A stretch of 64,000 nucleotides of DNA from a virus (IMGVR_UViG_3300026484_000001:62001-126000); one strand, 5' to 3'; counted from the first letter of the stretch, positions 2,826 to 60,846 are shown. The notes: generated by a model from the sequence alone, not told the origin. A program made the numbers and translations.

Positions 2826-2844
2826 GAATTTTGTAATTCTTTTT
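2824..2844 (+). terminator. intrinsic terminator
   Basis: Stem AAGAATT/AATTCTT with a 4-base loop followed by TTT, directly after the stop codon. A second hairpin (AAGGGGG...CTCCCTT, 2850-2868) follows. Confidence 0.6.
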
Positions 2845-2885
2845 GTGAAAAGGGGGTTTTGCTCCCTTCAACCATTAAATAGAAG

Positions 2886-2893
2886 TATAAATA
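2886..2893 (+). promoter_or_regulatory. TATAAATA, T4-type late promoter match
   Basis: An exact match to the T4 late -10 consensus TATAAATA, 17 bases before a small ORF with its own ribosome site. The match is short and may be chance, but a gp33-like co-activator candidate is encoded at 21906. Confidence 0.4.
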
Positions 2894-2909
2894 ACAACAA
2901 GGAACTAAG

Positions 2910-2981
2910 ATGAAGTCTGATAAAAGACCCACTTTAAGCTGTAATTTGAATTCGCTGAATTCGGATATGATTAAACTTTAG
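2910..2981 (+). CDS. possible leader peptide (23 aa)
   Basis: ORF starting MKSDKRPTLSC, preceded by AAGGA at seven bases. Its stop overlaps a 9-bp hairpin (2981-3005). Size and position suggest a leader peptide or a spurious ORF. No function is claimed. Confidence 0.3.
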   Translation: MKSDKRPTLSCNLNSLNSDMIKL

Positions 2982-3005
2982 TTCACCCTCTATCTCAGGG
3001 TGAAC
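2981..3005 (+). terminator. 9-bp hairpin, possible terminator
   Basis: GTTCACCCT pairs perfectly with AGGGTGAAC across a 7-base loop. No T-run follows at once (a T-rich stretch starts about 20 bases later), so termination is uncertain. Confidence 0.4.
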
Positions 3006-3052
3006 ATTCACTCTGGGAGCAATTTTTAAATTCCCCCAAATTTCTTATCAAT

Positions 3053-3086
3053 CTTAAGTAAGCTCTAAGCTAACTTTAGGTATAAT
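3053..3086 (+). promoter_or_regulatory. promoter
   Basis: CTTAAG, then CTAAGC, then TATAAT at 3081-3086. The block from about 3033 is almost identical to the one before the gene at 48008. Confidence 0.8.
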
Positions 3087-3151
3087 ATACTATATGAAAA
3101 GTAAATGGTTATTCCGCTTCTTTTTATCGTTCTTTAAAGTTTATATGATCT

Positions 3152-3184
3152 TTAAGCTGACTCTAAGTTAGTTTACGGTATAAT
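3152..3184 (+). promoter_or_regulatory. promoter
   Basis: TTAAGC (3152-3157), 21 bases, TATAAT (3179-3184). It drives the small RNA that starts near 3190. Confidence 0.85.
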
Positions 3185-3189
3185 ATAGG

Positions 3190-3255
3190 TAACGAAAGTT
3201 AAGTAACACGAATGAAGATTACAAAGGTTTATTTACCTTTGACTTAACTTTTAAA
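3190..3255 (+). ncRNA. small hairpin RNA closed by a 10-bp stem
   Basis: Starting about six bases after a strong -10, the transcript folds as AAAGTTAAGT (3195-3204) paired with ACTTAACTTT (3242-3251), with CAAAGGT (3222-3228) paired with ACCTTTG (3235-3241). No ORF is present. The closing stem is followed by a T-rich run, which could end transcription. Confidence 0.65.
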
Positions 3256-3267
3256 TCTATCAAAGCT

Positions 3268-3300
3268 TTAAGCTGACTCTAAGTTAGTTTACGGTATAAT
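3268..3300 (+). promoter_or_regulatory. promoter
   Basis: TTAAGC (3268-3273), 21 bases, TATAAT (3295-3300). The 35-bp core is identical to those at 3152 and 3452. Confidence 0.85.
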
Positions 3301-3306
3301 ATAGGT

Positions 3307-3445
3307 ATCTTAATAAGATGATAAGGTTTGTAAGGTGACTAAAGAGGTTCGAATCCTCCCTTGATTTTCAAGAGATTTTAAATGTTGGAAAAGTTGCCTC
3401 AACTCAGGTTCGAATCCTGACATTTTATTAAGTTTCAAATCTTTC
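3307..3445 (+). ncRNA. structured RNA with two tandem T-arm-like hairpins
   Basis: About 130 nt between two promoters. The ends pair (CTTAATAA at 3310-3317 with TTATTAAG at 3426-3433). Inside are two hairpins that copy the T-arm of tRNA: AGAGG-TTCGAAT-CCTC and TCAGG-TTCGAAT-CCTGA, with the same 7-base loop. Two short hairpins (CTTGA/TCAAG and AGTTG/CAACT) lie between. AAATGT/ACATTT could form a short acceptor-like helix on the second T-arm. There is no anticodon arm and no CCA. Confidence 0.6.
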
Positions 3446-3451
3446 AAAACT

Positions 3452-3484
3452 TTAAGCTGACTCTAAGTTAGTTTACGGTATAAT
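3452..3484 (+). promoter_or_regulatory. promoter
   Basis: TTAAGC (3452-3457), 21 bases, TATAAT (3479-3484). Transcription would start at the first base of a 13-bp closing stem. Confidence 0.85.
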
Positions 3485-3489
3485 ATAGG

Positions 3490-3860
3490 ATAAACTCTTT
3501 AATCAGGGCATCGATAAGCGGTCTAAGTCTTTTGACTGTGACCGCAACACGGTGTCTTTATTAAAGAGTTTAGTGTTTAGCTGACACGACACTCTGAGTT
3601 TTGAAGTCAGAACCTTGGGAATGTAGCATAGAGGTAAATGTAACTGCCGTGGAGGCAGAGAAGAGGGATCGTTACCCTCCTTTCTCTACAAGGGTTTTGA
3701 GTGAAAAATGTTGATCTTTTCGAGCACACTAGTCACTGCTCGAAAACTCAACATGAACGAATAGAAAGTCACTGTGCTGGGATCACCTGGATTTCAGTGA
3801 AACTTCTAACCGAGTTTGCAAGGTAGCACCTTGCGACTCAATGAATTACGAAATTTATTA
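3490..3860 (+). ncRNA. multi-domain structured RNA
   Basis: The first domain is closed by a perfect 13-bp stem (3491-3503 with 3560-3572). It holds GCGGTC/GACCGC, AAGTC-TTTT-GACT and GGCATCG/CGGTGTC helices. A tRNA-like domain follows (3611-3696). Next is a long hairpin with ATGTTGA/TCAACAT and TTTTCGAGCA/TGCTCGAAAA (3708-3754), then CACTG/CAGTG and GCAAGGT-AGC-ACCTTGC (3818-3834). No ORF fits. The domains may be one transcript or be cut apart after transcription. Confidence 0.6.
3611..3696 (+). ncRNA. tRNA-like domain, T-loop ATCGTTA
   Basis: AACCTT/AGGGTT and TGTAG/CTACA form an interrupted acceptor-like stem with no CCA end. Inside are a D-arm-like CAT-AGAGGTAA-ATG, an anticodon-like arm CTGC-CGTGGAG-GCAG (bases 34-36 would be TGG, with G instead of the invariant T at 33), and T-arm GAGGG-ATCGTTA-CCCTC. 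The G33 argues against normal decoding. Confidence 0.45.
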
Positions 3861-3865
3861 TATGA

Positions 3866-3898
3866 TTAAGCTTCTTTTAAGGAAGTTTACAGTATAAT
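3866..3898 (+). promoter_or_regulatory. promoter of the large RNA
   Basis: TTAAGC (3866-3871), 21 bases, TATAAT (3893-3898), just before the 1.5 kb structured RNA. Confidence 0.8.
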
Positions 3899-3903
3899 AA
3901 CGG

Positions 3904-5423
3904 TAACTTAAAAGGAAACTATAAGAACTTCATTAAGTTCATATCGGCATCCAGGGATAGTGTCTACTGCAAAGTATCGGCATCCGTGGCTAGTGTTTAT
4001 GAATTTAATGAAGTGCTTAGTACATAATGTCTGGCTTGGTTGTAGGTTTGCCCTATGTCAACGAAGACAAAGTGGAACGGGATTTCCGGACGCATATATT
4101 CGTAAAGATACTCTCAGTAATGGGACGAAAGGGGGATTGATAATCCTTCGCGGAAGTAATTCCGAACAAGTATGCAAAACAGAAAACTCATTAAGACATC
4201 ATCACGGTGGTGTTCGAATTGAACGATGAAGTACGAACTAAACAGTCTGGCCAACGGTGACACTGTTTGATCCCGCAAGGATCTAGTACATGCAAAATTC
4301 ATAAGAAATGACAAGTTTAATCTGTAGTTCATTGGTCCGAGTCGTAACTGGCAAGGGCTTATGTTCAGTCTACATGAAAAAAGTCGCAAGGCTGAGTATC
4401 GTGATGGACGGTGAAAGTAGTGTGTTGCATGAAATCACAAAAGGTGGGAAGCATTCTGAGGCTCAAAAGGCTTTGGAACTTCTGAGGGAGCCCATCTTTA
4501 TCAATCCGTAATAGCTTAAAGATAAGCATTTGTATTTGGCACAAAAGATTCAGGGTCATACCTGATTACTAATAAAAAACGCAAAGTCTCCCTCACCGTC
4601 ACTTGAAAGTGGCTTAAGTCTACACCCATAATGTGGGAATGAAGACATGTTGATGCTCGCAAGGCGGATATATGTTTAGTGGAAAGCAAAGTTATCCGGC
4701 TCGCACTGGAGAATGGCTCGCAAGGTCAGACTGAGTAGAACATTAGAGTAGAGTGACGGGATGCAAGAAAAGCTACTTGTTGGCGAAAGCCTAAACAAAA
4801 GCAGTCATTGGAAATACTCGACCGAAAGGATGAGTGGATAACACTGGGAAACAATAATCCAGTCAAAGGTTCCAGCTGAAAGCTATAATCTCAGGCTTCA
4901 AAATAAACTTTAAGAGTTTATTGAAATAAATTTGTGTAGCAGTGTTCGACTCCCGACCCACACAGAGTGGGTATTAAACGGGCAACTGTTATTGGCACTG
5001 GTGTGGGATCACGAGGATTATGAAAAGAATAATCGCAAATTTATTTCAATAAGTTCTTAATTTACTCAAAATGAAGAATGGAATGTAGGCTTATCAAGTT
5101 GAAAGTGTGAGAACTGGATGTGGAATTGGCTTATGAAACTAGAAGAAATTGTTTCTAACGAAAGTACGGATGAATGAATGAATATGAGATGCAAATTGGG
5201 TTTACCAGATAATTCTCTCCGGAACTCTTAGTAGAAAAGAACATCACTGAGGTTGTATATTCAGTGATTGACTTTCAAACTTTTATTATATGCTTTGAAT
5301 GGGTCAGAAGATAATGATGGAGGGTGCGCACCTGAAGTCAGTGATGATATGACAAATCACTTTGAAAATGATAATATTTAAGTTTTCAGAAGTGGTGAGG
5401 TTCGATCCCTCACCTTTGCACCA
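3904..5423 (+). ncRNA. large structured RNA (about 1.5 kb) with T-arm and CCA at the 3' end
   Basis: No convincing protein is encoded here; the short ORFs lack ribosome sites and their translations show no pattern. A 16-bp stem (3928-3943 with 3998-4013, one G-U) encloses two copies of ATCGGCATCC. A perfect 17-bp stem (4918-4934 with 5036-5052) encloses another domain with hairpin CCCAC/GTGGG. Many helices end in GNRA loops (CCGCAAGG, CTCGCAAGG, GGCGAAAGCC, CCGAAAGG). The 3' end is a 7-bp T-arm, GGTGAGG-TTCGATC-CCTCACC (5394-5414), then TTTGCACCA. Size, GNRA richness and position within a phage tRNA cluster recall the GOLLD and ROOL classes of large phage RNA; I cannot confirm membership. Confidence 0.7.
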
Positions 5424-5437
5424 ACAAATTTTAAATG

Positions 5438-5510
5438 TGCGGGGAACAGCGGATGTAATTTGGGCTCATAACCCAGACCCTGTGGGTTCAACTCCCACCC
5501 ACCGCAACCA
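5438..5510 (+). tRNA. tRNA-fMet-like (CAT), short D-arm
   Basis: Anticodon stem and loop GGG-CTCATAA-CCC carries the three G-C pairs typical of initiator tRNA, and the 3' end CCGCAACCA also matches it. T-arm GTGGG-TTCAACT-CCCAC. The first acceptor pair is T-A rather than the initiator C/A mismatch, one acceptor position (G/A) is mispaired, and the D-arm is small with a CGGAT loop like that of tRNA-Arg (TCG). Confidence 0.75.
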
Positions 5511-5515
5511 AATAT

Positions 5516-5592
5516 TGTATACGATTTCTCCAGGCGAGAAAGCTTGACTGTTAATCAAGAAGTGACTGGTTCGAGTCCAGTGTATACAGCCA
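5516..5592 (+). tRNA. tRNA-Asn (GTT)
   Basis: Acceptor TGTATAC/GTATACA, anticodon stem CTTGA/TCAAG with loop CTGTTAA (GTT), T-arm ACTGG-TTCGAGT-CCAGT, discriminator G and encoded CCA. Confidence 0.93.
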
Positions 5593-5600
5593 AACAACTT

Positions 5601-5693
5601 AAATTTAAGAACTCTGTCCTTGATCGGGATTAATATGGTACGAGCGGAAATGATCATCCGTGGACTGTTCGACTCAGTCGAGTTCTTAAATTT
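5601..5693 (+). ncRNA. tRNA-like RNA locked in a 14-bp closing stem
   Basis: AAATTTAAGAACTC (5601-5614) pairs perfectly with 5680-5693. The 65-nt interior is close to the size of a tRNA body. It ends in a canonical T-arm, GACTG-TTCGACT-CAGTC (5663-5679), directly joined to the closing stem as in a tRNA. It also has a D-arm-like TCC/GGGA and a hairpin CGGA/TCCG. There is no CCA and no normal anticodon loop. It follows tRNA-Asn by eight bases. Confidence 0.6.
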
Positions 5694-5936
5694 GGGTTGA
5701 TTACCTGAAGAGTCGCTATTGTTTTCGACTCAAAAAATACACAAACACGATAGTAAGTGATCGATACACACCACTGTTGGCATATCGCACAGACGATGCA
5801 GCGAGTTCCGGCTACACAGGGCAGAGGGAAACATCTAGAAGGTTTCATCGCAATTGTACATTGTGCGATTAACAAACTAAAATGAGCAAAAACTCGACCC
5901 ACTTAAAGATTTAATCAATCTCGGGTCGTTTCAAGT
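5694..5936 (+). ncRNA. structured non-coding stretch
   Basis: No ORF and no promoter of its own. Possible helices are GAGTC/GACTC, ATCGCACA/TGTGCGAT (8 bp, enclosing about 80 nt), GAAAC/GTTTC and CGACCC/GGGTCG. It runs directly into tRNA-Asp, so it is probably part of the tRNA transcript. Confidence 0.4.
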
Positions 5937-6013
5937 GGCCTACTAACTCAATTGGCTAGAGTGTCTCGTTGTCTGCGAGAAGGTTATCGGTTCGAGTCCG
6001 ATGTGGGTCGCCA
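5937..6013 (+). tRNA. tRNA-Asp (GTC)
   Basis: Acceptor GGCCTAC/GTGGGTC, anticodon stem TCTCG/CGAGA with loop TTGTCTG (GTC), T-arm ATCGG-TTCGAGT-CCGAT, discriminator G and encoded CCA. Confidence 0.93.
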
Positions 6014-6298
6014 TTTTCAAAATTGAATAAAGTAACTAACTAGAGTGGGAATGCTTGGATTGAGTTCTAGCACATACCTTAATAATGTTCTCGCATCCTT
6101 GATTTAGCGATCACGGGACAAGTACACATGCTCCTCTATGATACAATATGCATCACTTGTATCATAAATGTTTGTTATTTTATTCAGTCTTGCAAGAATA
6201 AACTGAAGTGTCGGAATATCAAGAACTGCACTATAAAGTACGATTATCTGGTGAGATGCATACTGCTGAACCTACTCTAAAAGGGTTATGGCACCAAT
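6014..6298 (+). ncRNA. structured non-coding stretch with possible tRNA-like end
   Basis: Holds a 9-bp hairpin ATGATACAA/TTGTATCAT (6138-6165) and TTATTC/GAATAA. It ends GGCACCA (6290-6296), like a tRNA 3' end, but I cannot find a matching 5' acceptor strand or a normal T-loop. Left unassigned. Confidence 0.35.
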
Positions 6299-6389
6299 GG
6301 AAGATCATTCTGGACGGCTCCAGACACAGACTTGAAATCTGTAGGCATTTTAAAAGCAGTGTGGGGATCGACACCTCGTTCTTCCTCCA
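6299..6389 (+). tRNA. tRNA-Ser (TGA)
   Basis: Acceptor GGAAGA/TCTTCC, anticodon stem ACAGA/TCTGT with loop CTTGAAA (TGA), long class II variable arm, T-loop ATCGACA, discriminator T and encoded CCA. Confidence 0.87.
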
Positions 6390-6416
6390 TTTTAAATATA
6401 AACATAAGGAAATACA

Positions 6417-6479
6417 ATGAAAACGACAAAATTAACGAAAACGACAAAACTTACAGACACATCTGAAAGAGATAGTTAG
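6417..6479 (+). CDS. possible small peptide (20 aa)
   Basis: ORF with an internal KTTKLT repeat after an AAGGA ribosome site. Its end lies inside a terminator hairpin. Very short and of doubtful reality. Confidence 0.25.
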   Translation: MKTTKLTKTTKLTDTSERDS

Positions 6480-6510
6480 GTAAAACTAGCTATGGGGTGT
6501 GTCTTTAATA
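6455..6510 (+). terminator. terminator-like double hairpin
   Basis: AGACACA (6455-6461) pairs with TGTGTCT (6498-6504), and inside it ATAGTTAG pairs with CTAGCTAT. A TTTAAT run follows. Confidence 0.5.
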
Positions 6511-6521
6511 AAAATAAAGAT

Positions 6522-6596
6522 GCATCCGAAGCTTAGTTGGCGAAGCACACGACTTTTAATCGTGGGAACAGAGTTCGATTCTCTGCGGTTGCACCA
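6522..6596 (+). tRNA. tRNA-Lys (TTT), copy 1
   Basis: Anticodon stem CACGA/TCGTG with loop CTTTTAA, T-arm CAGAG-TTCGATT-CTCTG, encoded CCA. One T-T mismatch in the acceptor (GCATCCG/CGGTTGC). Confidence 0.88.
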
Positions 6597-6604
6597 TTCA
6601 ATGT

Positions 6605-6680
6605 GGATGTGTAACTCAATTGGCAGAGTACTCGGCTTTTAACCGAGAGGTTGTGGGATCATTGCCCACCGCATCCACCA
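6605..6680 (+). tRNA. tRNA-Lys (TTT), copy 2
   Basis: Acceptor GGATGTG/CGCATCC, anticodon stem CTCGG/CCGAG with loop CTTTTAA, encoded CCA. Its body differs from copy 1, so it is not a recent duplicate. Confidence 0.9.
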
Positions 6681-6681
6681 T

Positions 6682-6756
6682 GCTTAATTAGTATAGTGGC
6701 GATTATCCTCGTTTTGTAATCGAGGGACAGGTGTTCGATTCACCTATTAAGCTCCA
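6682..6756 (+). tRNA. tRNA-Thr (TGT), copy 1
   Basis: Acceptor GCTTAAT/ATTAAGC, loop TTTGTAA (TGT) with a T-T mismatch at the top of the anticodon stem, T-arm AGGTG-TTCGATT-CACCT, discriminator T, encoded CCA. Confidence 0.85.
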
Positions 6757-6768
6757 AATTTTTAAAAT

Positions 6769-6845
6769 GCCGGATTAGCTCCAACTGGAAGAGCATTTCA
6801 CTTGTAATGAAAGGGCTATCTGTTCGAATCAGATATCCGGCACCA
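6769..6845 (+). tRNA. tRNA-Thr (TGT), copy 2
   Basis: Acceptor GCCGGAT/ATCCGGC, anticodon stem TTTCA/TGAAA with loop CTTGTAA (TGT), T-arm ATCTG-TTCGAAT-CAGAT, encoded CCA. Acceptor and discriminator differ from copy 1. Confidence 0.93.
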
Positions 6846-7330
6846 TTTATAGTATAAAGAACATTTTGGTGATTTTTGTACTGTTAAATGTTCACACTAA
6901 ATCAAAAACAATGGTAGGGTAAATGAGTATGCATGCTTCCGCTCATCAGTCCAGAAAATTGAGAAGTGTAAAAAGGTCTATTGTAGCCTCAGAACCTTGA
7001 AAGGGAGAGGGAATATGCCTTGGAGATATCCAAAAGCTTTTTGGCGAAAATTTGTGCAAAACAAAATCCGCTCCAATCAACTCAATTATATACAAGGGAT
7101 TTTATAACAGTCACCTGATCTTGTATATAATTGAGCGGATTTCGACCTAAATGATTGCCTCCGACTTCAACAAGACAAAGGCTCAAGAAAATCATTTGTT
7201 AGGGTTGTGCCCATCTTACACGGTTCTTGTTCCGGTGTAGGCTCTGGGGAACTCTCTGAGTCGTCCGCTCCAACAAACGACTGCCCTCTATTTGAACTTA
7301 TTGTAAGGTCATTCAACGGTGGTTTTTTAT
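6846..7330 (+). ncRNA. structured RNA with a 23-bp interrupted stem
   Basis: No convincing ORF. GAACATTT/AAATGTTC, ATGAG/CTCAT, then CTCAATTATATACAAG (7081-7096) pairs perfectly with 7120-7135 and AAATCCG (7064-7070) with CGGATTT (7136-7142). After it AAATGATT/AATCATTT forms 8 bp. GAGCGGA near 7134 can instead pair with TCCGCTC near 7270, so two folds compete. It lies between tRNA-Thr and tRNA-Leu. Confidence 0.55.
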
Positions 7331-7417
7331 GCTTCTCTGGTGGAATTGGTATACACGGTGGTCTTAGAAACCACTGCTCGAAAGGGCTTCCGAGTTCGAG
7401 TCTCGGGGGAAGCACCA
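7331..7417 (+). tRNA. tRNA-Leu (TAG)
   Basis: Acceptor GCTTCTC/GGGAAGC, anticodon stem GTGGT/ACCAC with loop CTTAGAA (TAG), class II variable arm, T-loop TTCGAGT, encoded CCA. Confidence 0.92.
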
Positions 7418-7451
7418 TAATTTTTATTATAAACTAAAACAAGGAAGGCAA

Positions 7452-7565
7452 ATGTCGCACATAAATGCAAAAATTGCTGAACTTGAGAAAGACGGTAAAC
7501 GAGAAAACATAGATTTTCGTATAGTATATTTTTCAGAATCAGCAGAATTAAAAATGTTGAAATAA
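7452..7565 (+). CDS. small hypothetical protein (37 aa)
   Basis: ORF starting MSHINAKIAELEK with AAGGAAGG upstream. Charged, no membrane segment, not recognised. It lies between tRNA-Leu and tRNA-Ser. Confidence 0.45.
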   Translation: MSHINAKIAELEKDGKRENIDFRIVYFSESAELKMLK

Positions 7566-7589
7566 CAAAATTCAAAAAAGGAGTCACGA

Positions 7590-7670
7590 ATGTTGACAAG
7601 GTTAAGATCATTATCAAGATGTTTATGTTTAAGATTATTGTCAATTCGTGATGGATTGAGTTGTAGCTAA
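7590..7670 (+). CDS. possible small Arg/Leu-rich peptide (26 aa)
   Basis: ORF starting MLTRLRSLSR behind a strong AAGGAG site. The cationic, leucine-rich composition could be a short amphipathic peptide. Real gene status is uncertain. Confidence 0.35.
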   Translation: MLTRLRSLSRCLCLRLLSIRDGLSCS

Positions 7671-7689
7671 ACTGCTATAATTTCAATTC

Positions 7690-7775
7690 GGATAGTGCAA
7701 GCAAGGTGCTTAAGGTGGTTGCTAACCACTGGGGTGTAAACAGCCTGATGGGTTCAATTCCCATACTATCCTCCA
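7690..7775 (+). tRNA. tRNA-Ser (GCT)
   Basis: Acceptor GGATAGT/ACTATCC, anticodon loop TTGCTAA (GCT) on stem GTGG/CCAC, class II variable arm, T-loop TTCAATT, encoded CCA. Confidence 0.92.
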
Positions 7776-7866
7776 TCTTCAATTAGTACATTCAGTACAA
7801 CCTTCAAAAACACAAACACTTTATTATTCATTCACAAATTTACTTGGTTATTCAAGCAACACATAT

Positions 7867-7953
7867 GCTCTCATGGTGGAATTGGCATACACAATGGACT
7901 TAAAATCCATGGCTCGGAAGGGCTTCTCGGTTCAAATCCGAGTGGGAGCACCA
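7867..7953 (+). tRNA. tRNA-Leu (TAA)
   Basis: Acceptor GCTCTCA/TGGGAGC, anticodon stem ATGGA/TCCAT with loop CTTAAAA (TAA), class II variable arm, encoded CCA. Confidence 0.93.
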
Positions 7954-7967
7954 TACTAAACAAATGT

Positions 7968-8043
7968 GCCGATGTACTTCAACGGATAGAAATTCCGACT
8001 TCTAATCGGAAAGTTGGGGGTTCAAGCCCCTCCATCGGTACCA
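7968..8043 (+). tRNA. tRNA-Arg (TCT)
   Basis: Acceptor GCCGATG/CATCGGT, anticodon stem TCCGA/TCGGA with loop CTTCTAA (TCT), encoded CCA. Confidence 0.92.
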
Positions 8044-8044
8044 T

Positions 8045-8119
8045 GTATGATTGGCCAAATGGTAAGGCACGGGATTGCAAATCCTGAGATTGTCAGTTCG
8101 AGTCTGACATCATGCTCCA
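8045..8119 (+). tRNA. tRNA-Cys (GCA)
   Basis: Acceptor GTATGAT/ATCATGC, anticodon stem CGGGA/TCCTG with loop TTGCAAA (GCA), T-arm TGTCA-GTTCGAGTC-TGACA, encoded CCA. Last tRNA of the cluster. Confidence 0.92.
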
Positions 8120-8153
8120 ATTTTGATGTATTAAATATCAACAAGGTTGTAAA

Positions 8154-11332: not shown

Positions 11333-11357
11333 ATAGTATAACTAAAAAGGATTCATT

Positions 11358-11471
11358 ATGATGGTAAAATGTAGAAAAACTGGTCGCATGTATGATCCAG
11401 AATTAGGGTTTGAAAAATTACTCAAAGAATCTTGGGTTATCGCGATTATGAAAAGACTTCGTTTCAGGTAA
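11358..11471 (+). CDS. small basic protein (37 aa)
   Basis: Starts MMVKCRKTGRMYDPE after AAAAAGG; basic at both ends. It sits between a strong promoter and the structured RNA, so it may be a real small gene or the 5' part of the RNA. Not recognised. Confidence 0.45.
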   Translation: MMVKCRKTGRMYDPELGFEKLLKESWVIAIMKRLRFR

Positions 11472-12190
11472 ACGAATATGGGAGTGGTGCTAATGGAGAG
11501 AGGCTGAAATGCTCGGGTTGCACCAGATGGCAAACTTAGATTACTCACGATTGAGCAAGGATAAGACCTGACTATTGGTATGTTAGGGGATAATCATGTT
11601 AGTGTTGGAAATAAGTGTACATGAGTTGGACAACTAACCATCAACTGCGAAGACAGTATAAACTCGGGTGGCACGAGATGTGAGAGTAACACTGTGCCGT
11701 ACAATTAATAAACTACTGAGGGCAACGGGACTCAGCATGACTCGGTGAGCGAGCAGTTCTTTATGGGTGTACTTGATATCAGTGCACAGCGGAAGCTTAT
11801 GAAGTGGGCTTCCCCACAGAAATGTGTTTTACAATCGTTGCTTCGGGTTACACACCACTGCGTCCAGTCGACCCTAGATGGTCAAAAGTGACTGTGTCTG
11901 AAGCACATTTATCCTCGATTGGTATAATTGGTTATTACTACTTATATGGCAGAGAAGCCAACATCCAAGATTTTAGCGGATCATGGTAGCAGTTGAAGAG
12001 GCGAAGTAGATTTGTTGGTGAATGTGAAATAACACCAACTTTTTGAAAAGCACAAAGGCTTGAAGTTCTAGCATAAGGTGCTAAATTGCTGAGTTCTATC
12101 TCAATTCACAGCGGATAGAATAGGTTTAAAAATGACAAGCGGAAGACAGCAAATAAGGTGATTGTGGTTCGAGTCCACGGTTGGGGGCCA
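11472..12190 (+). ncRNA. second large structured RNA (about 0.7 kb), ends in T-arm and CCA
   Basis: No plausible coding frame. Helices visible by eye: GGTGC/GCACC, CTGAG/CTCAG, CTCG-GTGAG-CGAG, GTGGG/CCCAC, GACC/GGTC and a perfect GTTGGTG/CACCAAC, plus longer-range GTTAG/CTAAC with GTTG/CAAC. The 3' end is GATTGTGG-TTCGAGT-CCACGGTT (8 bp with wobble pairs) then GGGGGCCA. TCTCAAT near 12099 could pair with GTTGGGG as an acceptor, but no anticodon arm is visible. It therefore shares the T-arm-CCA end with the 3904-5423 RNA while differing in sequence. Confidence 0.65.
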
Positions 12191-12211
12191 AATTTAATAT
12201 AAAGAAGAATA

Positions 12212-12541
12212 ATGAAAACAAAAATTCGTGAAAGAAACTACATTATCAGGGCTGAAATGGGTGGTACTATGCCGTACTATTTTGGTAGATACAAGAGCTA
12301 TTTAGGTAGACGAGTTTTATACCTTGATAAGCTTCGTACTTACATACTTGATGATAAAAAGAACGGCAGTTATGGCAATTTCAAAAGGTTCACTCTGGAA
12401 GAAGCCGAAGAAATGTTGAAACTCATCAAGGCTTGGTGGATGAATAATCCAAGGAAAAACCATTACAAGCCTAAAAAGTTTTATATTCAAAAAATCAGTA
12501 AAATGGAAAAACAATTCAAGAAGGATTTTGCATGCAAGTAA
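12212..12541 (+). CDS. hypothetical protein (109 aa)
   Basis: Basic, aromatic-rich protein, unrecognised. The GRYKSYLGRR and KNHYKPKKFY segments suggest nucleic-acid contact, which is only a guess from charge. It begins 22 bases after the structured RNA and overlaps the next gene by 10 bases. Confidence 0.75.
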   Translation: MKTKIRERNYIIRAEMGGTMPYYFGRYKSYLGRRVLYLDKLRTYILDDKKNGSYGNFKRFTLEEAEEMLKLIKAWWMNNPRKNHYKPKKFYIQKISKMEKQFKKDFACK

Positions 12542-23698: not shown

Positions 23699-24047
23699 AC
23701 GATTCATCCAGAGGGTCGGTGAGGAAGGGATTCTCACTGCTGCTCGGTTTGGGAAGGCGGTTAAAGTCATTGACATAAGGGTGAATGGTGCTGTCAAAAA
23801 GCCACTTACCATTTTATTCAACGAAAATCACTTACAAGTTGAAGATACTCACATTATATTCGAAAGTCATGAAGCTGAGGTTCTTTTCTTACAAGATCTA
23901 TACTTTGTTCTAGAAGAGTATAGTGAAATTCCCACAAAATCTCGTATAACCAACGGTCAGAAAGAAGTCACCATCGACCAGCTACTTGCTGAAGCTCGTA
24001 AAGATATTCAAAAAACATCACAAGGAGACATTGATGGCGAAAAATAG
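23682..24047 (+). CDS. hypothetical protein (121 aa)
   Basis: Overlaps gp44 and uvsX at its two ends. Beta-rich in the middle, charged at the C-terminus. Its place between gp44 and uvsX suggests a replication role, but I recognise no motif. It does not look like RegA. Confidence 0.72.
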   Translation: MSNSYKRFIQRVGEEGILTAARFGKAVKVIDIRVNGAVKKPLTILFNENHLQVEDTHIIFESHEAEVLFLQDLYFVLEEYSEIPTKSRITNGQKEVTIDQLLAEARKDIQKTSQGDIDGEK

Positions 24048-24951
24048 TATGATTGACAGATTGTCAAAAAACAAAGCACTCAAAGAGAGTGTATTCACTA
24101 AGAATCAAGATGCTGAAATTGATTTCATCAACACGGGAGCACTGGTGCTTAATGTGTTATTCTCTGGCCGTTTACAAGGCGGAATTCCTGTTGGGAAGAT
24201 CAGTTCAATTGCTGCTCCTTCAAGCTTAGGAAAGTCATTTGTTGGTATGAAAATTGCCAAAAACGCACAGAAAAAGGGTAAAGACTGGATTGTCATTTAC
24301 ATGGACACGGAAATGGCATTTGATTTTGATTTTGCTGATTCAATTGGGATTGATCTTGATAGATTGCTGGTTATTCAAAATAACCACATTGAAGAAGTTC
24401 AAAAACAAATCATGGCAGTTACCGCTGAGTTCTCAAAAGAAGAACGAAAAAAGGTTCTGATTGTTGTAGATTCATGGGGCGGTCTAGTTACCTCAAAAAC
24501 TGTAGACGATGCCAAAACTGGTAAAGATGTTACGGATATGACTGTTGCTAAGAAAAAGAATACATTATCAAAACTAATGACTTCTTTGGGTGTTACTATT
24601 TTTGTTGTTAATCAAGTTTATGATTGTCAAGTTGCTGGTACTATGGTAAAAACTGACTCCGGTGAGAAAGCAATTGAGGTGTTGAAAGAGGGAGACAAAG
24701 TTTTAACGACTGATGGTTTTCAAGATGTCTTAGAAACAGTTGAACACGAGGATGCTCATATTTTTGAAATTGAGTTGGAAGATGGTTCAACGATAAAATG
24801 TACTGAGGGTCATAAGTTCATTATTAGAAATACATTGACTGATTCTTTGGAATGGATCCCTGCAGGTGCTCTGTCCGAAAATATGGAAATTCTATGTGAA
24901 AGTGATTTAGAAGAGATAAAATCTAAAGAACTCGCCGAATATACCTTGTAA
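24034..24951 (+). CDS. uvsX: UvsX recombinase N-terminal part fused to N-intein
   Basis: N-extein 24034-24624 (197 aa): RecA/UvsX core with Walker A APSSLGKS (61-68) and LIVVDSWGGL, reaching IFVVNQVYD, the strand before the DNA-binding loop. From Cys at 24625 the sequence changes to an intein N-domain (108 aa): block A CQVAGTMVKT, GEKAIEVLKEGDKVLTTDG, and block B LEDGSTIKCTEGHKF, ending in a TAA at 24949-24951. The start ATG at 24034 follows AAGGAG. The rest of UvsX is a separate ORF at 25408. A working recombinase would need protein trans-splicing. Confidence 0.88.
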   Translation: MAKNSMIDRLSKNKALKESVFTKNQDAEIDFINTGALVLNVLFSGRLQGGIPVGKISSIAAPSSLGKSFVGMKIAKNAQKKGKDWIVIYMDTEMAFDFDFADSIGIDLDRLLVIQNNHIEEVQKQIMAVTAEFSKEERKKVLIVVDSWGGLVTSKTVDDAKTGKDVTDMTVAKKKNTLSKLMTSLGVTIFVVNQVYDCQVAGTMVKTDSGEKAIEVLKEGDKVLTTDGFQDVLETVEHEDAHIFEIELEDGSTIKCTEGHKFIIRNTLTDSLEWIPAGALSENMEILCESDLEEIKSKELAEYTL

Positions 24952-41700: not shown

Positions 41701-42410
41701 GAGTTATAAATTACATCGGTGCAAATGCAACTGGTAAATCGACAAGGGTTACTGTCCTTGTAAACTACTTAGAATCTAAGTTCGATGTTGAAGATGTAGA
41801 ATTCACATATACTAAGAAGTCTAAGAAAAATGGTGACAAGCAAGTCACTACAAAAGTCGGACTTCGCTTCTCAAATGGAGTTGTAATCTTTGGTAAGTTT
41901 GACGGAAGTCGTAAATGGATTGGCCTTGACACTGGTATGTGTTCATCTTGGGATCAAAGATCAGCATTTATCACTGAAATGAAAGCTCGTGGGGCTGAAA
42001 CAGTAGTATTTGAGGGTTATTTTAACAACCGCAGTAAGATTGCTGGTCCTGAGACATTTCACAATGCTGGTGCTGATGAAGTTCATATTCTAGCGAGTTT
42101 TTACGACAAATGTGAAGACTTCTTGATGAGAACTAATATCAGATCAGGAAAGTTGAGTCGTGGTATGGAATGGGCTGAAAATGCTCCTGGTTGGAAAGAC
42201 AACAAGGGCATCATCAACTCACAAAAATATTGGCTAGAACAAGCTAAAGAAAATGACACGGTCACTCGTATTGACATTGATGAATCAAGAGGTTATCTTG
42301 TTGAAAGATTCTTTGAAAAAGACTTTGATTATAATACATTTTATGAGTCATTTGAAAGTCCCTCAGTTGAAGCGAAAGCCCCTGGAGCGGACTTAGATGA
42401 GTGGTTCTAA
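41697..42410 (+). CDS. P-loop kinase, candidate 5-hydroxymethyl-dU DNA kinase
   Basis: 237 aa. Walker A GANATGKST (8-16) at the N-terminus and ETVVFEGYFNN as a Walker B-like strand. It overlaps the PLP gene by four bases and ends in DEWF, like other modification proteins here. In known pathways a P-loop kinase phosphorylates the 5-hydroxymethyl group of dU in DNA to make it a leaving group. Assignment rests mainly on context. Confidence 0.65.
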   Translation: MRVINYIGANATGKSTRVTVLVNYLESKFDVEDVEFTYTKKSKKNGDKQVTTKVGLRFSNGVVIFGKFDGSRKWIGLDTGMCSSWDQRSAFITEMKARGAETVVFEGYFNNRSKIAGPETFHNAGADEVHILASFYDKCEDFLMRTNIRSGKLSRGMEWAENAPGWKDNKGIINSQKYWLEQAKENDTVTRIDIDESRGYLVERFFEKDFDYNTFYESFESPSVEAKAPGADLDEWF

Positions 42411-42482
42411 CCTTATATTAACCTTAAAATGGTGTTATTAACCTTTTAAGGTTAATATAGTGATTTTAAGGTTAATATAAGG
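42411..42482. repeat. 19-bp inverted repeat with an inner palindrome
   Basis: 42411-42429 and 42464-42482 are perfect complements. TATTAACCTT/AAGGTTAATA forms a second nested hairpin with a TT loop. Probably a terminator for the kinase gene; the same TTAAGG supplies the -35-like box of the next promoter. Confidence 0.75.
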
Positions 42483-42498
42483 TAATATACGGTATAAT
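42466..42498 (+). promoter_or_regulatory. promoter
   Basis: TTAAGG (42466-42471) inside the inverted repeat, 21 bases, TATAAT (42493-42498). Confidence 0.7.
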
Positions 42499-59892: not shown

Positions 59893-59995
59893 TTACAACT
59901 CCTATTCATTATGAGCTTATTTACTATATAGATAACTATAACCTCGACATCCACAAGTGACCCTCACTCACCCTGACACATAACTACTAAATTTA

Positions 59996-60049
59996 GACTG
60001 ACTAGACTGACTAGACTGACTAGACTGACTAGACTGACTAGACTGACTA
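59996..60049. repeat. GACTGACTA x 6
   Basis: Six exact 9-bp units in tandem. Confidence 0.95.
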
Positions 60050-60149
60050 GGCTCTATTGGGGGTGGTTCAGACGGTAGTTCGATATTAGTCTCTAGGAGA
60101 GGGTCACTTTCGGGTGATGAGGGGTTCAGTGCTTTTTTTGCATTTTTGG

Positions 60150-60197
60150 TTTCAGTGTTTCAGTGTTTCAGTGTTTCAGTGTTTCAGTGTTTCAGTG
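60150..60197. repeat. TTTCAGTG x 6
   Basis: Six exact 8-bp units, directly followed by the 28-bp repeat array. Confidence 0.95.
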
Positions 60198-60308
60198 CGG
60201 TTCAGGGGTTTATTTTATTTCAGGGCGGTTCAGGGGTTTATTTTATTTCAGTGCGGTTCAGGGGTTTATTTTATTTCAGTGCGGTTCAGGGGTTTATTTT
60301 ATTTCAGG
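60197..60308. repeat. 28-bp tandem repeat x 4
   Basis: Units at 60197, 60225, 60253 and 60281, each starting GCGGTTCAGGGG; only the last base varies (G or T). No spacers, so not CRISPR. Confidence 0.95.
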
Positions 60309-60548
60309 GGTTTGGTCACGGTTCGCAATGGGTTTTATACCACGCACAACACTTCAGGGAACTCTTTATTAATTTTATCCCTGATCTCTTAGCTTCTTAT
60401 TATGGAACATTATCTATGCCCTTAATCACCACCTCTTCTTCACGACACGGCATACTTAAGAGTCCTTGATACAAATGCTTGAGACAACACCCGAACAGAG
60501 GAGAGGGCATCTGAGGAACTTATAAGTCACACAGTCTACTTGATGATA

Positions 60549-60582: not shown

Positions 60583-60602
60583 GGTATCAGTTCCCTAAAC
60601 TT

Positions 60603-60684
60603 CTTAACTAATCCCCTGGAGTGTTACAACGGAGACCTCTAAATATAGACCTTTGAGGTCATGTGTTCGAGGGGATTAGTTAAG
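60603..60684 (+). ncRNA. structured element closed by a 15-bp stem
   Basis: CTTAACTAATCCCCT (60603-60617) pairs perfectly with 60670-60684. Inside, GACCTC/GAGGTC forms a second helix. The shape (long closing stem, about 50 nt inside) repeats the elements at 3-7 kb. No promoter was found just upstream. Confidence 0.5.
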
Positions 60685-60846
60685 CTTGATCAGATCAAAT
60701 CAGATGTACACGACACAGAGTACAACCCTTAAAGTCTTAAAGTCTTAATGCTCTAATAATATTATAAAAAGTTTACTATATATGGAAATGTTTATAGGGA
60801 ACTAGGGAATGATAGAGGGAATGATATAGAGAACTAATCTTCACAT

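What the first reader, a model, noticed from the sequence alone, without database searches (positions are those of the whole stretch)
3100..7330. Cluster of promoter-driven RNAs, each closed by a long stem, inside a phage tRNA locus
At least seven non-coding elements have ends that pair perfectly or nearly so: 3195/3251 (10 bp), 3310/3433 (8), 3491/3572 (13), 3708/3754 (7 plus 10), 3928/4013 (16), 4918/5052 (17), 5601/5693 (14) and 7064/7142 (23). Four identical-style promoters serve them. Long closing stems recall RNase III processing stalks around rRNA, or RNAs protected from exonucleases or circularised by RNA ligases, two of which this phage encodes. I know of no described family with this layout. 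Decoys for tRNA-targeting defence is a further idea.
Basis: partly seen in the sequence, partly recalled or inferred. Interest (0 to 1): 0.9.

Follow-up and report, generated by a model that had tools for sequence, protein, structure and literature searches.

The report
Paired-end RNAs between phage tRNA genes
Between its tRNA genes this phage encodes several small RNAs whose two ends zip together into long stems; distant relatives, and unrelated phages grown on E. coli K-12, keep such stems while changing their sequence, so these RNAs are probably real and can be tested in the laboratory.

Summary
The stems are real and not chance. Six of the eight strongest end-to-end helices (score >=15) in the 155-kb phage genome lie in this 5.3-kb tRNA locus; shuffled copies average 0.01. 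Most named intervals fold far better than shuffles. The other elements match no Rfam family. Two relatives (groEL 51-54% identical) carry the same kind of promoter-plus-stem RNAs. Five proposed homologous families keep their helices by 15 compensatory pairs against 5 broken. Unrelated cultured phages (Stephanstirmvirinae on E. coli and Klebsiella) also fill tRNA spacers with stem-closed RNAs that covary. Best reading: paired-terminus small RNAs, released from tRNA-array transcripts or started at their own promoters, with the long stem fixing and protecting the ends. Contents vary: some are tRNA-like (compare T4 RNA C), some rods, and in the E. coli phages one displays a loop complementary to ribosome-binding sites. 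Circles, RNase III stalks and decoys remain untested. Side result: relatives carry Y-RNA-like, tRNA-mimicking RNAs directly upstream of a phage Ro60 gene.

The parts
3054..3090 (+). First copy of the phage promoter motif (TAAGCTAACTTTAGGTATAAT type)
   Evidence: repeat family D2; same motif in relatives L011 and L039
3154..3189 (+). Promoter motif, copy identical with 3270 and 3454
   Evidence: (0 mismatches, none expected by chance)
3190..3254 (+). Element X: 11-bp closing stem stacked directly on a 6-7 bp hairpin, 17-nt single-stranded linker (minihelix-like)
   Evidence: fold z -4.6, 0 of 200 shuffles
3270..3305 (+). Promoter motif, identical copy
3306..3438 (+). Element A: closing stem 3309/3432 and two perfect T-arm-like hairpins (AGGTTCGAATCCT), one stacked on the closing stem; tRNA-like
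   Evidence: (D10), fold z -1.7 only; counterpart by position of L011:5144-5225 and L039:7620-7712
3454..3489 (+). Promoter motif, identical copy
3488..3575 (+). Element E: rod-like hairpin closed by 13 bp starting at the predicted transcription start
   Evidence: fold z -9.7; counterpart L039:7712-7789, 4 compensatory pairs
3608..3690 (+). Degenerate tRNA-like sequence (Rfam tRNA 31.6 bits at 3617-3687; no U33 in the anticodon loop as read)
   Evidence: sequence; fold no better than shuffles
3708..3754 (+). Hairpin, 7+10 bp
   Evidence: fold z -3.5
3866..3903 (+). Diverged promoter copy upstream of element C and GOLLD
   Evidence: repeat family D1
3918..4020 (+). Element C: 22-column closing stem directly 5' of GOLLD; interior holds a 25-nt tandem repeat
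   Evidence: fold z -7.1; stem shared with L039:7851-7993 with 1 compensatory and 1 G-U/G-C change
4018..4905 (+). GOLLD RNA (known family RF02032), with a tRNA-like insert at 4505-4573
   Evidence: 224 bits, E 4e-62; full length from alignment with L011
4908..5062 (+). Element D: 25-27 column closing stem directly 3' of GOLLD
   Evidence: helix score 24.9; fold z -6.6; counterpart L011:8463-8581, 5 compensatory pairs and none broken
5595..5700 (+). Cloverleaf-like element with a 20-column closing stem and a T-arm (GACTG TTCGACT CAGTC) stacked on it; starts 3 nt after tRNA-Asn
   Evidence: fold z -4.3; tRNA end
6014..6196 (+). Possible further stem-closed spacer starting right after tRNA-Asp
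   Evidence: helix score 15.9; first 127 nt fold no better than shuffles
7064..7143 (+). Hairpin with 10+15 bp closing helices
   Evidence: fold z -5.6
60598..60690 (+). Isolated element of the same build outside the tRNA locus (22-column stem)
   Evidence: helix score 16.2; fold z -5.6

Best explanation
These are small stable non-coding RNAs with paired termini, scattered between the tRNA genes and on both sides of GOLLD. Four elements start at or near the predicted start of transcription from the phage's own promoters; others lie in the array transcript, one starting 3 nt after a tRNA. The long end-to-end helix is the selected part. It most likely fixes the two ends and shields the RNA from 5'-end-dependent and 3' decay once neighbouring tRNAs have been cut out. 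The interior is a variable payload: tRNA-like in some (A, 5595), rod-like in others (C, E). Shown: the helices, their excess over chance, their preservation in relatives, and the same layout in unrelated cultured phages. Inferred: transcription, release by tRNA processing, stability and any function of the payload.
For: Helix excess in this locus and fold energies. Proposed counterparts in L011 and L039, in similar order after the same promoter motif, keep helices with 15 compensatory, 6 one-sided and 5 broken pairs. In family B the stem sequence is kept while the interior differs. In Stephanstirmvirinae, elements begin at the 3' end of one tRNA and some end 2-4 nt before the next (anhysbys: 108574-108771 before tRNA-Met 108775; starts at 108925, 109340, 109814; 110203-110299 before tRNA-Gln 110303). 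Their helices covary: spacer after tRNA-Ser, 42 pairs, 163 of 168 cells paired, 5 compensatory pairs, against 0 compensatory and 65-96 paired when slid; Gly-Gln spacer, 27 columns with compensatory changes between clades. Real tRNAs of the window phage lack such leader-trailer pairing. T4 has two stable RNAs in its tRNA cluster; rnaC folds with a T-arm beside its terminal helix.
Against: No expression data. Element A folds only slightly better than shuffles. Only two relatives were found, so most families in the window rest on two sequences, aligned by hand. The window's elements and those of the E. coli phages share layout, not sequence, so common descent or function is not shown. The layout is not universal: no helix of score >=15 in the T4 or mycobacteriophage tRNA clusters and one in Karimac.
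Confidence: 0.5

Rival explanations
1. Processing stalks: the long stems are RNase III sites that separate GOLLD and tRNAs from the array transcript, and the interiors are discarded.
For: GOLLD has a long hairpin on each side in both phages that have it (window 3922-4019 and 4910-5060; L011 7495-7551 and 8463-8581); stems of 15-28 bp would suit RNase III (general knowledge).
Against: Four elements start at or near a promoter, which a separator does not need; interiors are structured and, in the E. coli phages, conserved and covarying.
Confidence: 0.22
2. tRNA-mimicking decoys that occupy host tRNA-cutting or tRNA-binding proteins during infection.
For: T-arms stacked on the closing stem in element A and at 5595; L039:7620-7712 has a 7-bp acceptor, T-arm and CCA but no normal anticodon arm; the phage encodes two RNA ligases.
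Against: Elements C, D and E and the hairpins have no tRNA-like arms; no target is known.
Confidence: 0.12
3. Antisense RNAs with paired termini, displaying a loop complementary to translation starts.
For: The conserved loop of the Gly-Gln spacer in E. coli/Klebsiella phages is the complement of GAAGGAGAAAACCATGAG and matches 20 nt of a PaulScherrer start region; the L011 hairpin 7495-7551 pairs with a start region better than 12 shuffles (17.3 vs maximum 14.9).
Against: Window interiors do not exceed shuffles except marginally at 3708 (14.6 vs 12.7); the PaulScherrer target is not kept in anhysbys.
Confidence: 0.06
4. Circular RNAs made by the phage ligases.
For: Ends are brought together by the stem; RtcB and an RNA_ligase-family protein are encoded.
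Against: No sequence sign of a cleavage or ligation motif; many phages encode such ligases for tRNA repair (PMC7824862).
Confidence: 0.04
5. Decayed tRNA genes and chance or DNA-level inverted repeats without RNA function.
For: Degenerate tRNA-like sequences occur here (3617-3687, 5449-5506); stems are AT-rich.
Against: Helix excess and compensatory changes; real tRNAs next door show no such stems.
Confidence: 0.06

Closest known systems
T4 RNA C and RNA D (species 1 and 2 RNAs)
   Same: Small stable RNAs of a phage tRNA cluster; rnaC has a T-arm beside a terminal helix
   Different: No long closing stem (no helix of score >=13 in the T4 cluster); no sequence comparison made
GOLLD/ROOL RNA islands
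   Same: The locus contains a full GOLLD beside tRNA genes, with a tRNA-like insert
   Different: The small stem-closed elements are outside GOLLD and match no Rfam family
Bacterial Y RNAs (YrlA type)
   Same: Long stem made by the two ends, with a tRNA-like module in some (resemblance from my own knowledge)
   Different: Window phage has no TROVE/Ro60 match and no copy of the signature found beside Ro60 in relatives
Engineered paired-termini antisense RNAs
   Same: A long terminal stem on a small RNA; the Gly-Gln spacer of E. coli phages also has an open, start-site-complementary loop
   Different: Window elements have structured interiors without clear complementarity

Membership tests
GOLLD (RF02032) | Match to the covariance model above gathering score | tested here: met
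   224 vs 150 bits at 4439-4897
tRNA (RF00005) for the stem-closed elements | Covariance-model match over the element | tested here: not met
   No match at elements X, A, E, C, D, 5595 or 7064 even at E<=5; ARAGORN none
Any described Rfam family for the stem-closed elements | Match at gathering score, or E<=5 with lax filters | tested here: not met
   Only GOLLD and tRNA-type matches plus weak chance-like ones
Bacterial Y RNA | Encoded with a Ro60/TROVE protein | tested here: not met
   No PF05731 match in G000, while three other phage records match
T4 RNA C/D | Stable RNA accumulating in infected cells | not testable with these tools
   Needs RNA from infected cells
T4 RNA C/D | Homologous sequence and structure | not tested
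   No direct comparison made; only layout compared
Paired-termini antisense RNA | Open loop complementary to a translation start above chance | tested here: not met
   Window elements at or near shuffles, (3708 marginal; 12 shuffles only; phage starts only, host starts not tested)
Circular RNA | Covalently joined ends | not testable with these tools
   Needs RNase R and junction reads

The most novel reading that the evidence does not exclude
Phage tRNA arrays of unrelated lineages carry a general, undescribed class of spacer RNA: a paired-terminus chassis released by tRNA processing that holds interchangeable payloads (tRNA mimics, rods, start-site antisense loops).
Probability: 0.3. Interest if true: 0.8.

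Novelty: new variant of a known kind. Interest (0 to 1): 0.6.

Why it matters
Spacers in phage tRNA arrays are usually treated as filler. If they are stable RNAs with selected end helices, they form a hidden layer of phage RNA biology, and phages isolated on E. coli K-12 (PaulScherrer, alia, anhysbys) make it directly testable. It would also give the unexplained T4 RNAs C and D a possible wider context.

Tried and rejected
Rfam for the small elements, at gathering and lax thresholds: nothing beyond GOLLD and tRNA. DNA similarity of the locus in 50,697 phage records: the listed hits lie on tRNA genes. Leader-trailer pairing around real tRNAs as the explanation: absent in the window; suggestive at most around one tRNA of L011 and one of L039. 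Y RNA reading for the window: no Ro60 and no signature motif. Antisense to the window phage's own translation starts: not above shuffles except marginally at 3708. DprA-like gene as the conserved target of the E. coli phage loop: not kept in anhysbys. Same-species contig L042: identical over 4,156 nt, so no information. Pattern hits for GOLLD in viral contigs (L052-L054, L056-L058): no Rfam support. MAFFT alignment A3 misplaces the 3' strand of anhysbys, so the helix strands were compared explicitly instead.

Full report
The window is bases 62001-126000 of a 154,998-bp viral record. The locus 2826-8153 holds tRNA genes, a full-length GOLLD RNA (4439-4897 by model; about 4018-4905 by alignment with a relative) and, between them, the elements named in the finding.

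Observation. All eight pairings are in the sequence, several longer than stated. Scoring helices that close 40-220 nt (Watson-Crick +1, G-U +0.3, mismatch -2), the 155-kb genome has eight of score >=15, six of them in this locus; 100 dinucleotide shuffles of the locus gave a mean of 0.01. Seven of the eight intervals fold well below shuffled energies; the one at 3306 does so only weakly. Real tRNA genes in the same locus lack pairing of leader with trailer, so the stems are a property of the other elements. Promoter motifs precede four of the elements; the motif is used elsewhere in the genome too.

Relatives. groEL lies downstream of the locus. Two viral contigs whose groEL is 51-54% identical have comparable loci: L011, which has GOLLD, and L039, which does not. 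Short shared blocks there are promoters, GOLLD and tRNAs, plus two blocks covering small elements (families A and B). Taking order and stem sequence together I paired five families: A (L011:5144, L039:7620, window 3306 by position only), B (L011:5327, L039:8072), C (window 3922, L039:7851), D (window 4910, L011:8463) and E (window 3491, L039:7712). On hand-aligned strands the helices show 55 unchanged, 15 compensatory, 6 one-sided and 5 broken pairs. The alignments were chosen to pair, so this leans towards structure; D and E, with 5 and 4 compensatory changes, are the strongest.

Other phages. Of five cultured tRNA clusters scanned, T4 and a GOLLD-bearing mycobacteriophage have no helix of score >=15, Karimac has one, Klebsiella phage KP13-26 four and Aeromonas phage AhP_Mru1 two. 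Several in the last two fill the gap between two tRNA genes; one in AhP_Mru1 instead encloses tRNA-His. KP13-26 belongs to Stephanstirmvirinae, which includes phages isolated on E. coli K-12. In anhysbys five of nine genome-wide helices of score >=15 lie in the 2.5-kb array, with bases at tRNA ends. The spacer after tRNA-Ser covaries: 42 pairs, 163 of 168 cells paired, 5 compensatory pairs, none when the strands are slid. The Gly-Gln spacer keeps its helix across three clades while its loop stays constant and complementary to a Shine-Dalgarno plus ATG. It matches 20 nt at the start of a DprA-like gene in PaulScherrer, but that target is not kept in anhysbys.

Mechanism. I favour paired-terminus small RNAs: ends set by the promoter or by excision of neighbouring tRNAs, protected by the stem, carrying a payload that varies. 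The helices, their excess and their preservation are shown; transcription, processing, stability and payload function are inferred. Element A, the 5595 element and L039:7620 resemble tRNA halves; T4 rnaC, whose role is unknown as far as I recall, folds with a T-arm beside its terminal helix. RNase III stalks are the main rival, helped by the hairpins on both sides of GOLLD in two phages.

Novelty. No Rfam family matches the small elements, and my few literature searches turned up no description of stem-closed spacer RNAs; the library is open-access only. The setting (GOLLD/tRNA islands) and the general kind (stable RNAs of phage tRNA clusters) are known, so I call it a new variant of a known kind.

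Side result. Downstream of groEL both relatives carry long-stem RNAs with the signature ATTACAG-N5-RAWTACATC...CGATTTCAT, some enclosing a circularly permuted tRNA-like module. They lie directly upstream of a TROVE/Ro60 gene; one further record with both signature and Ro60 was found, and two with the signature alone. I predicted the Ro60 gene from the build of the RNAs before searching for it. The window phage has neither.

Noticed in passing
L011:12596-12886; L039:12009-12668; L095:12818 and 13114; L073:7745 and 7866; L129: Y-RNA-like long-stem RNAs with a strict internal signature; in L011 and L039 directly upstream of a phage Ro60/TROVE gene, and the L129 record also encodes one. Some carry a permuted tRNA-like module (L095: acceptor capped by a TTCG loop).
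   Followed up: partly
L011:18350-18835; L039:17098-17413: tmRNA matches in both relatives (57.8 and 50.1 bits, gathering 47).
   Followed up: no
window 4505-4573 and L011:8054-8124: tRNA-like inserts inside GOLLD; the L011 one is called tRNA-Leu(TAG) by ARAGORN.
   Followed up: no
window 6299-6385: A class II tRNA, probably tRNA-Ser(TGA), missed by ARAGORN; scores 43.9 bits as tRNA-Sec, below cut-off.
   Followed up: no
window 11340-12290: About 900 bases after groEL, behind a promoter motif, that look like a structured RNA ending in a T-arm and GCCA; no Rfam match.
   Followed up: partly
window 5190-5425: A tRNA-like 3' half with T-arm and ACCA whose possible 5' half lies about 200 bases upstream; perhaps an interrupted tRNA.
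   Followed up: no
window 42410-42483: 21-bp perfect inverted repeat in an intergenic stretch just upstream of a promoter-like TATAAT.
   Followed up: no
window 59940-60340: Dense short tandem repeats (GACTAGACT; TTTCAGTG) in a non-coding stretch, possibly an origin-like region.
   Followed up: no
L195:4028-4118 (PaulScherrer 148485-148575) and relatives: Conserved spacer loop complementary to a Shine-Dalgarno plus ATG.
   Followed up: partly
L011:7495-7551: Hairpin upstream of GOLLD whose loop pairs with a phage start region better than 12 shuffles.
   Followed up: no
window 23986-24951: RecA-like protein that appears interrupted by an intein-like sequence, by reading only.
   Followed up: no
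L192:2913-4541 (Karimac): Annotated Ro-like RNA binding protein inside a phage tRNA cluster.
   Followed up: no
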